Assembly: GCA_016188045.1 (NCBI GenBank)
Contig: JACPIM010000016.1
Location: 1-48,889 of the forward strand
Length of the DNA: 48,889 bases
From: Candidatus Woesearchaeota archaeon
Lineage (GTDB): Archaea; Nanobdellota; Nanobdellia; SCGC-AAA011-G17; JACPIM01
Reading direction: 5' to 3'
Shown here: positions 1-37,894 of the stretch, in pieces
How the letters are laid out: each line of letters starts with the position of its first letter
Position numbering within the stretch: position 1 is the first letter of the stretch
The notes under the pieces: model-generated
What the model was told of the DNA's origin: nothing
Databases searched by the model: none
What the model saw: only the letters and a program-made list of their open reading frames with translations
Made by a program: the position numbers and the translations under genes

Positions 1-19
1 ATAATCGCCGTGACCCGGA

Positions 20-75
20 CTTTCATGAACTTTCTTTTTCTTTCGCGAACGTTTCTTTTTAAAAAGAAAGGTTCT
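20..75 (-). other. Non-canonical T-loop intron of tRNA-Ser
   Basis: About 56 bases interrupt the T loop between TTCAAA and the final T60, with a one-base ambiguity. The 3' border reads ATGAAAG, the same as in the tRNA-Lys T-loop intron at 37202-37236. The intron is nearly filled by a hairpin-rich module with core CTTTCGCGAACG (40-51, plus strand) and a TTTCTTTTT/AAAAGAAAGG stem (52-71) that recurs near 16018-16092. Confidence 0.78.
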
Positions 76-108
76 TTTGAACCGGGACGCCCTTTTAAAG
101 GCCAGGCT

Positions 109-121
109 TGCTCGCATAATT
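109..121 (-). other. Anticodon-loop intron of tRNA-Ser
   Basis: These 13 bases sit between loop position 37 and A38, the canonical archaeal tRNA intron site. Both anticodon stem strands flank them directly. The exact cut could shift by a base because the borders are A-rich. Confidence 0.8.
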
Positions 122-219
122 TTCCAGGCCTGTGCAATACCAGGTTATGCGATCACGGCATAGATAAATTTAATAAAGAAATTATGTTTTTAAAAACCTT
201 GCTAAAACAAGATTCATAA

Positions 220-33644: not shown

Positions 33645-35447
33645 TTAATATTTACTGACTAAATTTAGTTTAGGATAAACCCCCAAAGATTTTAATTCAT
33701 CTAATAATAATTTAAAGGCGTAGCTTAGTTCTATTGCGGTAATCTCCACATTAGCTCCGCACCTTATGCAAAATTTTTTATTCCTATAATCATCGCTAAC
33801 AGCTAAGGAACCACAACTCTCACAAACATGAACCACGGTTTTATCTGAATCAAATCTTTCTTTAAGCAATAAACTAGCACCGTGTGCGACAAAACAATCT
33901 TTCTCCATCTCTCCTAATCTTAATCCACCGCCTTTGCTTCTACCTTCTATTGGTTGTCTCGTTAATAATTGTATTCTTCCAGATGCTCTAGCATGCAATT
34001 TATTTGCAACCATATGTTTAAGTTTCAGGTAAAACATATTACCTATGTAAATATCTGCCTTGTAAATCTCGCCGGTTATACCATTATACATGGTTTCACA
34101 ACCATTTTCTCTAAATCCTAATTCTTTCAATTCCTTCCTTAATTCTTCAACATTTTCAGAACCAAAAGTAGTGCCATCAATATATCTTCCAGATAAAGCA
34201 CCAACTTTTCCAGCTATAACCTCTATTAAATGGCTTATGGTCATTCTAGAAGGAACAGAGTGTGGTGAAAAAATTATGTCTGGTTGTATCCCACTGGCAG
34301 TAAATGGAATATCCGCCTCTGGAACTATGGCACCTATAACTCCTTTCTGACCGTGTCTTGAAGCAAATTTATCTCCAACCTCTGGAATTCTTAAATCTCT
34401 AACCCTTGCTTGAACCAATTTATTTCCTTCTTCATTCTCAGTCAATACCACCATATCAACTTTGCCTTCTTCTCCTTGTTTAACAGCAACACTGCTCTCT
34501 CTTCTTGTTGATGCCGCAATAGAAAATTCTTCTAGCTCACCTAAAAATCTAGGTGGACTTGTTTTTCCAATAATCACATTATCAGGTTCAACCTTTACTT
34601 CAGGACCAACAATACCGTCAGCATCTAATAATTTATAGTCCTTTTCACTTTTATATCCTTTAACTTCTTTATCTGGTATTCCAATCTCATCAACCAAACC
34701 ACCAGAATATCTTAATTCTTCTGCAACATAAGGCCTGAAATAAGTGCTTCTTGCTAATCCTCTTTGAACACTTCCTTTATTTACTACAATTGAGTCCTGC
34801 ATGTTATAACCACCATAGCTCATTAATGCAATAACAATATTCTGCCCAGAAGGATGATTTTTATATCTGGAAATTTCATGCATAAAACTTTGTACTATTG
34901 GAATCTGCGGAGAATGCAATACACTCACATCAGTATCCATTCTTAATAAATAATTTGTGGCATATAATCCTAAGCTTTGTTTTTGTGTTTTACTACCCCT
35001 GTTTAATCTAGAACTTTGAACAAAATTAGCATAAGGAACTAAACTTGTAGTTAATCCCAACAATATGCTTGGGCTTATTTCCAAATGAGTATGTTCATTA
35101 GTAACATATTCTTCATTCAAGGCAACGAGGGCATTTTCTTCTTCAGCAGCATCTAAATATTCTATAATACCATTTGTTATCAGGTCCTTCCAGGATAGTT
35201 CACCTTTTCTGCACTTGTTTATAATTTCTGTAGTTACTTTGCTTTTTCCATTTTCAATAATTATAACCGGTCTTCTTACTCTCCCCTTTGAACTTTCAAT
35301 GTGAATTTCATTTAATTTCTTATCATAATAGATATTTAGTTCACTAGGCAATTTGTTGGTTCTTCTCATTTCTTTGAATTTACTAACAAAATTTTCTGTG
35401 TCATCCACATTCCCAATAAATCTTTCATCTAAAAATATATCAACCAT
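33645..35447 (-). CDS. rpoB1: DNA-directed RNA polymerase subunit B'
   Basis: 600 residues, the C-terminal half of the split second subunit. Conserved blocks include MSYGGYNMQDSIVVNKGS, VGDKFASRHGQKGVIG and HKLHARASGRIQLLTRQPIEG-like sequence. A zinc site C542xxC545...C560xxC563 lies near the C-terminus. Its ATG overlaps the rpoB2 stop by eight bases. Confidence 0.96.
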   Translation of the reverse strand: MVDIFLDERFIGNVDDTENFVSKFKEMRRTNKLPSELNIYYDKKLNEIHIESSKGRVRRPVIIIENGKSKVTTEIINKCRKGELSWKDLITNGIIEYLDAAEEENALVALNEEYVTNEHTHLEISPSILLGLTTSLVPYANFVQSSRLNRGSKTQKQSLGLYATNYLLRMDTDVSVLHSPQIPIVQSFMHEISRYKNHPSGQNIVIALMSYGGYNMQDSIVVNKGSVQRGLARSTYFRPYVAEELRYSGGLVDEIGIPDKEVKGYKSEKDYKLLDADGIVGPEVKVEPDNVIIGKTSPPRFLGELEEFSIAASTRRESSVAVKQGEEGKVDMVVLTENEEGNKLVQARVRDLRIPEVGDKFASRHGQKGVIGAIVPEADIPFTASGIQPDIIFSPHSVPSRMTISHLIEVIAGKVGALSGRYIDGTTFGSENVEELRKELKELGFRENGCETMYNGITGEIYKADIYIGNMFYLKLKHMVANKLHARASGRIQLLTRQPIEGRSKGGGLRLGEMEKDCFVAHGASLLLKERFDSDKTVVHVCESCGSLAVSDDYRNKKFCIRCGANVEITAIELSYAFKLLLDELKSLGVYPKLNLVSKY

Positions 35448-36930
35448 TTTTAATATCCTTTAACCCTATTTGATATAATGCTTTTTTTATCTTATCTTCA
35501 TCATAAGTCTGATGTGATATTGTACTCAATAATGCAAGATTTTTTCTTAACCCAATTGAAGTTCCCTCGGGTGTTTCTATTGGACACAACCTGCCCCAAT
35601 GTGTGCTATGTAATGCTCTTGCTTCAAAATTCTCTTGGGAAGCACTTAATAGACTAACCACTCTTTGTAAATGACTTAATGTAGCTAAAAAATTAGTTCT
35701 ATCCATGTTTTGGCTAATCCCCCTTCTTCCACCAACCCAAGCACCAGTAGCCATAGCGCTTTTTATTCTTGACGTTAATAATTTATCCCTTATTATTATT
35801 TTAACAGAACTAAATTTACCCCTTTTTACCAATCTTTGAAAATTATATAATAAATCATTAACCAACGCCCTCATATTAACTCTAAACAAATCAATCAACA
35901 AATCACCACTTAATTTCAATCTCTTATTCGAATAATGATCCTTATCAATTATAATTCCTTTCTGGGCAATTAATAAAAATCTCCTAATCAATTTGCATAA
36001 ATTATATGCTTTAGTTAACCTATCTTTTTCTGCTATTCCCAAGTGAGGTAATAAATACTTATCCAGGTTCTCAAACACTTTCTCAGTTTGAACTTCTTTT
36101 GGAGCCATAATGCCCATCCTCTTCGCAATAGCTTCAATGGCCTCGCTTTGTTTCTTTAGTTCAACGGAATTAAACAAATTTATTAAAACATCATCCAAGA
36201 TTTTTTCTTCAGATATGGCCTTTGAAATTTCTTCATCTTTTATTAGACCAAGTGTTTTTATTAAATCAATTACAGGAATTCTCTTAAATCTTGTGAACGA
36301 TACATATATTATTCCATCTTTCATTTGTTCTATTGTGTGTGGTATTCTATAAGAACCCATTTCAGAAAAAATTTGTGCAGTATACTTGCTTGGTCCGCTT
36401 TTTTTTCTATTAAAAAACATTTTGTTAGAGACTAGATCTTCTACAGTAATAAGCACCCTTTCATTGCCATTTAAAATAAAATAACCACCAGGATCATCAG
36501 GATCTTCACCCTTTTCAGCTAGTTCTTCATAATTTAATCCATTTAAATAACAATATTTGCTCTTTAACATTATTGGAATTTTTCCAATCTGCGTCCTAAA
36601 AGAATCTCTTTGAACGCCATCTATATGCACACTAATATTCAGAAATATTGGTGCAGAATAACTTATTTTTCTTAATCTTGCTTCAATAGGATAAATCGAT
36701 CTTTTGCTACCGTCTGCTTCTACTATTATTGGCTTTTCAATTTCAATCTTGTCTAATTTAATTCTAAAATCTTGAACATCCGGAGGAATTATAGTGGGAA
36801 CAACATCGCCTATTTCTTTAATTACCTCTTGCATCCCATGTTCTATAAAATAATTAAAACTATCTATGTCAGCTTTAACTAAAGAATTTTCATCAAAATA
36901 TTTTTTTATTAACTCGTTACCTTTAATCAT
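35440..36930 (-). CDS. rpoB2: DNA-directed RNA polymerase subunit B''
   Basis: 496 residues, the N-terminal half of the second subunit. GYFILNGNERVLITVEDL, RRGISQNMDRTNFLATLSHLQRV and HSTHWGRLCPIETPEGTSIGL are typical. The split between B'' and B' occurs after the last block, as in many archaea. It overlaps the rpoH stop by eight bases. Confidence 0.96.
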   Translation of the reverse strand: MIKGNELIKKYFDENSLVKADIDSFNYFIEHGMQEVIKEIGDVVPTIIPPDVQDFRIKLDKIEIEKPIIVEADGSKRSIYPIEARLRKISYSAPIFLNISVHIDGVQRDSFRTQIGKIPIMLKSKYCYLNGLNYEELAEKGEDPDDPGGYFILNGNERVLITVEDLVSNKMFFNRKKSGPSKYTAQIFSEMGSYRIPHTIEQMKDGIIYVSFTRFKRIPVIDLIKTLGLIKDEEISKAISEEKILDDVLINLFNSVELKKQSEAIEAIAKRMGIMAPKEVQTEKVFENLDKYLLPHLGIAEKDRLTKAYNLCKLIRRFLLIAQKGIIIDKDHYSNKRLKLSGDLLIDLFRVNMRALVNDLLYNFQRLVKRGKFSSVKIIIRDKLLTSRIKSAMATGAWVGGRRGISQNMDRTNFLATLSHLQRVVSLLSASQENFEARALHSTHWGRLCPIETPEGTSIGLRKNLALLSTISHQTYDEDKIKKALYQIGLKDIKNG

Positions 36931-37168: not shown

Positions 37169-37201
37169 TTTCTGTTTGTGATATGGAAGGGCCGGACGGG
37201 A

Positions 37202-37236
37202 CTTTCATTATGGGTTGATAAGGGTTTACCCTTATA
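37202..37236 (-). other. Non-canonical T-loop intron of tRNA-Lys
   Basis: 35 bases sit between TTCAAA and T60 of the T loop (one-base ambiguity). On the minus strand they carry the hairpin ATAAGGGT-AA-ACCCTTAT and end in ATGAAAG, the same 3' end as in the tRNA-Ser T-loop intron. The hairpin and its GGTTG flank match the dispersed element at 313-336. Confidence 0.8.
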
Positions 37237-37258
37237 TTTGAACCCGCGACCACCTGGT

Positions 37259-37274
37259 TTCTTTAACTTCTACT
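37259..37274 (-). other. Anticodon-loop intron of tRNA-Lys
   Basis: 16 bases (AGTAGAAGTTAAAGAA) sit between loop position 37 and A38, the canonical site. Both anticodon stem strands flank them. Confidence 0.8.
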
Positions 37275-37312
37275 TAAAAGCCAGGTGCTCTACCGTGCTG
37301 AGCTACCGGCCC

Positions 37313-37549
37313 AATCTCTCTAGCTATATAATCAATACTAAAAAAGGTAAAAAGATCTATTTTTTATAGAAATCTACCTCATTTGTTATCAAAGTATAGC
37401 TAGAATTGTTATGATAAATAAATGAATTAAGTAAAAAGTTAAACATTTTGTGGGAATAGCCGAATAAAGTTTGATATCTTTAGAATTTTGCCAAATTAGT
37501 CATTTATATAGTTTTCGGTCAACTTTTTTTAAAAAGTTTAATAAAAAAA
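37313..37549. other. Spacer between tRNA-Lys and the tRNA-Asp-like gene
   Basis: About 237 bases of AT-rich DNA with no gene visible. A T-run (minus strand, just after 37550) probably ends the tRNA-Asp-like transcript. TATATAATC at 37324-37333 is a weak promoter candidate for tRNA-Lys. Confidence 0.4.
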
Positions 37550-37655
37550 CGCCTGTGCCGAGAATCGGACTCGGGTCTGGGCCTATCTGTTTTCTTTTCC
37601 AAGGTTTTCTTCCAAAGAAAAGCTTATCGACAGGGCCCTGTACTAGCCATTGTAC
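37550..37655 (-). tRNA. tRNA-Asp(GTC)-like gene lacking the 5' acceptor strand
   Basis: From the D arm to the 3' end the fold is good: D stem GTAC (37655-37652) with GTAC (37643-37640), loop AATGGCTA, anticodon stem GGGCC/GGCCC, anticodon GTC, variable loop AGAC, T stem CCGAG/CTCGG, 3' acceptor CACAGGC (37557-37551) and G73, an aspartate identity base. A 43-base intron (37585-37627) sits at the canonical site. The matching 5' strand GCCTGTG is absent upstream for at least 200 bases, where TCTAGCTCG is found instead. The T loop reads TCCGATT with C at position 55. It may be a pseudogene, or half of a split tRNA. Confidence 0.6.
37585..37627 (-). other. Anticodon-loop intron of the tRNA-Asp-like gene
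   Basis: 43 bases between loop position 37 and A38, with an internal CTTTTC/GAAAAG stem. Its plus-strand 17-base segment TCCAAAGAAAAGCTTAT (37611-37627) also occurs at 17158-17174 beside the major pilin promoter. Confidence 0.7.
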
Positions 37656-37719
37656 CGAGCTAGATTTTTAATTTATAAAGTTTGCTTTTAGAAAAAATAT
37701 CCCCACTCCCGGATTTGAA

Positions 37720-37743
37720 TTTCCCGAAACTGATTAAGTTCCT
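37720..37743 (-). other. T-arm intron of tRNA-Asn (position 53/54)
   Basis: 24 bases separate CCCGG from TTCAAATCCGGG. Inside, GTTCC-CGGA-GGAAC can form a hairpin across the 5' border. The site differs from the 59/60 site used in tRNA-Ser and tRNA-Lys. Confidence 0.75.
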
Positions 37744-37759
37744 CCGGGAACCTTTCGGG

Positions 37760-37835
37760 TTGGGCTGACTTATTTTCATCCATACCTTTAGGTTAGTCAA
37801 TAAGTGAATTCATCTTTAGCTTACCTTAAAAAGGT
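37760..37835 (-). other. Anticodon-loop intron of tRNA-Asn
   Basis: 76 bases, unusually long, between T37 and C38 at the canonical site. Internal ACCTTTTTAAGGT and TTGACTAACC / GGTATGG stretches can pair. The border base is ambiguous by about one. Confidence 0.7.
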
Positions 37836-37894
37836 AAACAGCCGAATGCTCTACCATTGAGCTAAGTGGGGATATATAAAAAACATCAAAAATA

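What the first reader, a model, noticed from the sequence alone, without database searches (positions are those of the whole stretch)
37550..37662. tRNA-Asp-like gene with no 5' acceptor strand
Seen: D arm, anticodon arm with intron, T arm, 3' acceptor CACAGGC and G73 are all present, but GCCTGTG is absent upstream and not found downstream either. A TATA-like ATTTATAAAG (37671-37680) is placed so that transcription would begin near the D stem. T-loop position 55 is C. Inference: either a decaying gene or a tRNA whose first seven bases come from a separate transcript. Split tRNAs are known in Nanoarchaeum, though split at other sites.
Basis: partly seen in the sequence, partly recalled or inferred. 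Interest (0 to 1): 0.65.

Follow-up and report, generated by a model that had tools for sequence, protein, structure and literature searches.

The report
tRNA-Asp gene missing its 5' end
In a small archaeon (Woesearchaeota), the normally single, conserved gene for the aspartate tRNA has lost its first nine bases while the rest looks healthy; a small recent deletion or an assembly error explains this best, and no separately encoded missing piece could be found.

Summary
On the minus strand, 37655-37550 encodes nucleotides 10-73 of a tRNA-Asp(GTC): perfect D, anticodon and T stems, a 43-nt intron at 37/38, 3' acceptor CACAGGC and G73. Nucleotides 1-9 are replaced by TCTAGCTCG. The host is a Woesearchaeota genome (G000, 1.02 Mb, 24 contigs, 92.5% complete).

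The gene is the positional ortholog of the tRNA-Asp next to tRNA-Lys upstream of rpoB. All 42 other Asp genes testable in relatives, including both same-family genomes, have an intact 5' acceptor, and nine near-complete relatives have exactly one Asp gene each. No second Asp gene and no 5' partner was found: all 36 GCCTGTG sites and 22 GYYTGTGTR sites lie in ORFs, other tRNAs or 23S rRNA, with no leader pairing beyond chance. No Thg1-type repair enzyme was detected.

The strong TATA box sits 20 nt before G10. In 29 other tRNA genes here it lies about 28 nt before nucleotide 1, so about 17 nt are missing. The body shows no decay: C55 and A15 occur in intact relatives.

Best reading: a recent ~17-bp deletion, or an equivalent assembly error, removed the leader end plus nucleotides 1-9. 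A trans-encoded acceptor strand is not excluded (about 15%).

The parts
37550..37655 (-). tRNA-Asp(GTC) body, nucleotides 10-73, with a 43-nt intron; nucleotides 1-9 missing
   Evidence: direct reading and intron-tolerant finder; Asp covariance model 41.3 bits
37640..37655 (-). D arm GTAC-AATGGCTA-GTAC (nt 10-25), 4 Watson-Crick pairs
37579..37638 (-). anticodon arm GGGCC-CTGTCG[intron]A-GGCCC; intron 37627-37585 at position 37/38; CTGT/ACAG can form the central helix of a BHB-type site
   Evidence: folding of the pre-tRNA shows the anticodon stem, intron hairpin and T arm
37558..37574 (-). T arm CCGAG-TCCGATT-CTCGG, C at position 55
37550..37557 (-). 3' acceptor strand CACAGGC and discriminator G73
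37656..37664 (-). TCTAGCTCG in the place of tRNA nucleotides 1-9; does not pair with CACAGGC; its CTAGC can pair with GCTAG of the D arm
37671..37680 (-). TATA box CTTTATAAAT, 11.0 bits on the genome's own tRNA-promoter matrix, centre -20 from G10
   Evidence: only 4 of 97758 window positions reach 10.9 bits
37690..37700 (-). T-rich tract after tRNA-Asn, terminator-like
37543..37549 (-). T7 tract directly after G73, terminator-like
37700..37871 (-). tRNA-Asn(GTT) with introns, complete acceptor CCCCACT/AGTGGGG
37188..37312 (-). tRNA-Lys(TTT) with introns in the anticodon and T loops, complete acceptor (3' end approximate)
35440..36930 (-). RNA polymerase subunit B'' (rpoB N-terminal half), synteny anchor
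   Evidence: Pfam; 80 related loci

Best explanation
This is the ordinary, positionally conserved tRNA-Asp(GTC) gene of a Woesearchaeota genome, broken at its 5' end by a small deletion. About 17 bp are missing: roughly the last 8 nt of the leader plus tRNA nucleotides 1-9. The promoter and the body from G10 on are left intact. As assembled, the locus would make a transcript starting in or near the D loop that cannot close an acceptor stem, so it would not be charged. Because tRNA-Asp is essential and single-copy in relatives, the deletion is either very recent with an intact copy in unassembled sequence, or not in the organism at all (an error or minor variant in a metagenome assembly). Shown: the missing bases, the intact body, the promoter spacing deficit, the intact single-copy orthologs, and no partner or second copy in the assembly. 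Inferred: the deletion event, its recency and the lack of function.
For: All 42 other testable Asp genes from relatives keep a paired 5' acceptor; the two further exceptions of the finder are a false call (L182, whose real gene is intact) and a gene cut by a contig end (L189). Nine near-complete relatives, two of them single-contig, each have one Asp gene, and all nine are intact. Both same-family genomes have Asp 2-3 nt before Lys with a full acceptor (L115, L266). TATA centre is -20 from G10, against a median of -28 (quartiles -30 to -27) from nt 1 in 29 other tRNA genes of the genome, a deficit of about 17 nt. The D stem is intact right at the breakpoint, as expected of a deletion ending at nt 9/10. 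Body integrity argues for recency: C27-G43 of both nearest relatives is G27-C43 here, and T13/T22 is C13-G22. C55 occurs in 5 intact tRNAs of relatives and A15 in the intact Asp of G010. No other detected tRNA of this genome lacks its 5' acceptor.
Against: No second tRNA-Asp was found in the assembly, so a true deletion would be lethal unless a copy lies in the missing ~7%. The spacing to tRNA-Lys has also changed (237 nt against 2-34 nt in most relatives, 158 nt in one), so the locus was really rearranged and is not simply mis-assembled at one point. The TATA box is the best-scoring of the set and the unit has T-tracts on both sides, which looks like a maintained transcription unit. The body has no sign of relaxed constraint.
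Confidence: 0.62

Rival explanations
1. Split tRNA: nt 1-9 (or 1 to about 17) are encoded on a separate small transcript and joined in trans by the splicing endonuclease and ligase, using pairing between the leader of this 3' piece and a trailer of the 5' piece.
For: The body is intact and has its own strong promoter and T-tract. It is the only Asp gene found. tRNAs of this genome are full of introns, and intron sites are where splits arise (PMC4033280). Split tRNA-Asp(GUC) is known in Aeropyrum pernix and Thermosphaera aggregans (PMC3218864).
Against: None of 36 GCCTGTG or 22 GYYTGTGTR sites looks like a 5' half: all lie in ORFs, other tRNAs or 23S rRNA. GYYTGTGTR is no commoner than its reversed control (22 against 23). 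Best leader duplex -9.8 kcal/mol against a random 5% level of -8.9 in 36 tests. Known cases have 13-14 bp of trans pairing (PMC3218864). TATA spacing would start the transcript inside the D loop and leave no leader. The best combined candidate (G000:C15:53307) lies inside a 527-codon reading frame.
Confidence: 0.15
2. Old pseudogene, drifting since the 5' end was lost, with a divergent functional tRNA-Asp elsewhere.
For: The 3' acceptor differs at three of seven positions from the nearest relatives. My isotype survey of the genome is incomplete (Glu, Cys, Tyr and Met were not recognised), so another Asp could have been missed.
Against: All stems are perfect, with both-side changes. C55 and A15 are seen in intact tRNAs. 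GGC-G at 70-73 is kept. The Asp model would be expected to find an intact copy: it scores Asp with a 41-42 nt intron at 73-80 bits, while the best G000 hit is 48 bits and is not Asp.
Confidence: 0.15
3. A 5'-truncated transcript is rebuilt by a 3'-5' polymerase (Thg1-like protein) using the 3' acceptor as template.
For: Thg1-like proteins repair 5' ends of tRNAs in other systems (PMC6471195, PMC4284800; found, titles and abstracts only).
Against: No Thg1 family hit in the assembly at E up to 0.1. Unpaired nt 8 and 9 have no template.
Confidence: 0.02

Closest known systems
Split tRNA-Asp(GUC) of Aeropyrum pernix and Thermosphaera aggregans (PMC3218864)
   Same: Same isotype; a 3' piece with its own promoter; a rearrangement at the tRNA-Asp locus in one lineage while relatives stay intact
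   Different: Those split at 37/38 with a BHB site and G+C-rich trans pairing (14 bp in A. pernix), and the 5' half is next door; here the break is at 9/10, with no leader room and no partner
Intact Woesearchaeota tRNA-Asp genes (e.g. G001 L115, G002 L266)
   Same: Position next to tRNA-Lys, anticodon loop CTGTCG, intron at 37/38, G73, T-arm sequence nearly identical to G002
   Different: They have nt 1-9 and sit 2-3 nt from tRNA-Lys; here nt 1-9 are missing and Lys is 237 nt away
Permuted tRNAs of Thermofilum pendens (PMC3218864)
   Same: Also noticed through abnormal promoter-to-tRNA spacing
   Different: There the 5' half lies downstream of the 3' half; here no GCCTGTG lies downstream

Membership tests
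tRNA-Asp(GTC), Woesearchaeota ortholog | Anticodon GTC, G73, D/anticodon/T arms matching the family | tested here: met
tRNA-Asp(GTC), Woesearchaeota ortholog | Syntenic position (Asp then Lys, upstream of rpoB) | tested here: met
tRNA-Asp(GTC), Woesearchaeota ortholog | Seven-base-pair acceptor stem | tested here: not met
   5' strand absent
Split (trans-spliced) archaeal tRNA | A partner locus encoding the missing part | tested here: not met
   none in the 92.5% complete assembly
Split (trans-spliced) archaeal tRNA | Complementary leader and trailer forming a BHB-type site at the junction | tested here: not met
   no duplex beyond chance
Split (trans-spliced) archaeal tRNA | Own promoter at the expected distance from the 3' piece, with leader | tested here: inconclusive
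   strong TATA, but its spacing puts the start inside the D loop
Split (trans-spliced) archaeal tRNA | Mature joined tRNA seen in RNA | not testable with these tools
   no RNA data
Permuted tRNA | 5' half located downstream of the 3' half | tested here: not met
   no GCCTGTG on the minus strand of the contig
Thg1-like 5' repair substrate | Thg1-family enzyme in the genome | tested here: not met
tRNA pseudogene (long decayed) | Broken stems or loss of conserved core bases | tested here: not met

The most novel reading that the evidence does not exclude
The acceptor 5' strand and nt 8-9 of the only tRNA-Asp are supplied from a separate transcript encoded in the unassembled part of the genome. 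This would be a split between acceptor stem and D arm, a site not among the known split sites I could check, and in a lineage (Woesearchaeota) with no split tRNA in the papers I found.
Probability: 0.13. Interest if true: 0.8.

Novelty: new member of a known kind. Interest (0 to 1): 0.36.

Why it matters
If the break is real and the gene works, it would be a tRNA whose seven-base acceptor strand is made separately, a smaller and more 5' tRNA piece than in the split tRNAs I know of, and it would extend split tRNAs to Woesearchaeota. If, as is more likely, it is a deletion or an assembly defect, it shows that gene-level checks of metagenome genomes should include promoter spacing and synteny before a 'split tRNA' is claimed.

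Tried and rejected
Exact and wobble searches for a 5' half (GCCTGTG 36 sites; GYYTGTGTR 22 sites; GCCTGTG with nearby CGAGCTAG, 0 sites): all in ORFs, tRNAs or 23S rRNA. Site G000:C15:53307 (TATA 7 bits at -29, GTTTGTGTAGCTAG, partial leader complement) was rejected because it lies inside a 527-codon reading frame. G000:C14:89006 (GCCTGTG outside any long ORF) was rejected as the 3' tail of 23S rRNA by its sequence. Permuted arrangement rejected. Convergent neighbour as in T. aggregans: no GCCTGTG, GTCTGTG or GCTTGTG nearby on the plus strand except the gene's own complement. A long cis intron: no GCCTGTG anywhere upstream in the contig. C55 and A15 as decay marks: rejected, both occur in intact relatives. 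Thg1 repair: no enzyme found. Loss of RNase P as in Nanoarchaeum: rejected, RNase P RNA is present at 110 bits. The first leader test mainly revealed the dispersed intron-like element and AT-rich matches.

Full report
What was checked. I read the minus strand of the window around the finding and located each tRNA element. From 37655 to 37550 there is a complete tRNA-Asp(GTC) from nucleotide 10 to the discriminator: D arm GTAC-AATGGCTA-GTAC, anticodon arm GGGCC-CTGTCG[43-nt intron]A-GGCCC, variable loop AGAC, T arm CCGAG-TCCGATT-CTCGG, 3' acceptor CACAGGC, G73. In place of nucleotides 1-9 stands TCTAGCTCG, which does not pair with CACAGGC. GCCTGTG does not occur on the minus strand of this contig at all. 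Standard finders report nothing because of introns, but a covariance model built from sixteen relatives' tRNA-Asp, without this gene, finds it.

Host and synteny. The contig belongs to a 1.02-Mb, 24-contig genome, 92.5% complete. Its RNA polymerase B'' is most similar to Candidatus Woesearchaeota records. The order on the minus strand is tRNA-Asn, tRNA-Asp, tRNA-Lys, rpoB''. In Woesearchaeota the pair Asp-Lys just upstream of rpoB is conserved. The same-family genomes G001 and G002 have Asp 2 and 3 nt before Lys, with full acceptors GCCCTGG and GCCTTGG. In the window the Asp-Lys spacing is 237 nt.

Is it unique? My intron-tolerant finder saw 45 distinct Asp candidates in all loci held, and 42 have a paired 5' acceptor. 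The three exceptions are the window gene, a false call in L182 whose real Asp is intact, and L189, where the contig begins inside the gene. In nine near-complete relatives the Asp model's top hits contain exactly one Asp(GTC) each, always with positions 1-73. In the window's genome no other Asp was found. The same model scores the introned Asp genes of G001 and G002 at 80 and 73 bits, while the best hit in G000 is 48 bits and is a glycine tRNA. About twenty other tRNA genes of G000 were decoded by the acceptor finder and all have both acceptor strands. This survey is not complete: I did not recognise Glu, Cys, Tyr or Met tRNAs, so a multiply interrupted or unassembled Asp could be missed.

Is the body decaying? 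C at position 55 and A at 15 looked suspicious. But TC at 54-55 occurs in 5 of 209 intact tRNAs of relatives, and the intact Asp of G010 has A15. Against both nearest relatives, pair 27-43 changed from C-G to G-C and T13/T22 became C13-G22. So the stems were under selection until recently. The body reads as a working tRNA.

Promoter spacing. I trained a TATA matrix on 29 other tRNA genes of this genome. The box centre lies at a median of -28 from nucleotide 1, with quartiles -30 to -27. The Asp box CTTTATAAAT scores 11.0 bits, above all 29; only 4 of 97758 positions in the window reach 10.9 bits. Its centre is 20 nt before G10, that is 11 nt before where nucleotide 1 should be. An intact gene would need about 37 nt from box to G10, so about 17 nt are missing. 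A deletion of that size ending at the 9/10 boundary accounts for the lost acceptor, the intact D stem and the short spacing in one step. Chan et al. (PMC3218864) also used promoter spacing to detect abnormal tRNA genes.

Search for a separate 5' piece. All 36 GCCTGTG sites in the assembly were read. Those not in long ORFs are other tRNAs, the gene's own complement, and the 23S rRNA tail. GYYTGTGTR, which allows G-U pairs and the usual nucleotides 8-9, gives 22 sites against 23 for the reversed control, all inside long ORFs. Pairing of the 40 nt after each GCCTGTG site with the leader does not exceed chance. Pattern search for GCCTGTG followed by CGAGCTAG gave none. The most tRNA-like candidate, G000:C15:53307, lies inside a 527-codon reading frame. 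Matches to the complement of the leader and D arm in the 436 kb held (overlaps counted) are short or AT-rich. Known split tRNAs show 13-14 bp of perfect trans pairing and a BHB site (PMC3218864); nothing of the kind is seen.

Other mechanisms. Repair by a Thg1-like 3'-5' polymerase lacks the enzyme in this assembly and would have no template for nt 8-9. RNase P RNA is present, so this is not a Nanoarchaeum-like loss of 5' processing.

Conclusion. The feature is real as sequence. The best-supported account is a small deletion, recent in the organism or introduced in the assembly, that removed the end of the leader and nucleotides 1-9 of the normal tRNA-Asp gene. A trans-encoded acceptor strand is not excluded, because tRNA-Asp is essential, the body is intact, and 7% of the genome is missing. 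It has no positive evidence beyond that.

Noticed in passing
window 37627-37585 (-); G000:C9:201387, C17:29128, C24:63977, C14:89637; L032, L033, L034, L035, L036: The Asp intron carries a dispersed ~37-nt element (AAGCTTTTCTT..AAGAAAACCTTGGAAAAGAAA). Near copies (88-95% identical) sit upstream of ORFs, inside the 23S rRNA peptidyl-transferase region and, in relatives, in or beside ribosomal-protein reading frames: a mobile or repeatedly copied intron-like element.
   Followed up: partly
G000 tRNA loci L014, L015, L016, L017, L019, L023, L025: tRNA genes of this genome are unusually rich in introns at non-canonical places (D loop, T loop, variable region and, in L025, apparently next to both acceptor strands), which defeats ARAGORN and Rfam thresholds.
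   Followed up: partly
G000:C24:3499-3619 and C24:14891-15011: Two tRNA-Arg(GCG) copies with the same introns but different discriminator base and flanks, 11 kb apart.
   Followed up: no
window 37313-37549: The Asp-Lys spacer (237 nt, against 2-34 nt in most relatives) holds a 25-nt degenerate copy (76%) of the Asp promoter region (37490-37514) and a 10-bp inverted repeat TCTAGCTATA/TATAGCTAGA, whose TCTAGCT also occurs in the Asp leader.
   Followed up: partly
window 1-134 and G000:C3:1-60: The contig starts inside a tRNA-Ser(GGA) with introns that overlaps the start of contig C3, so C2 and C3 probably join there.
   Followed up: no
G000 as a whole: No tRNA-Glu, Cys, Tyr or Met was recognised in the survey; they are either multiply interrupted or missing from the assembly.
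   Followed up: no
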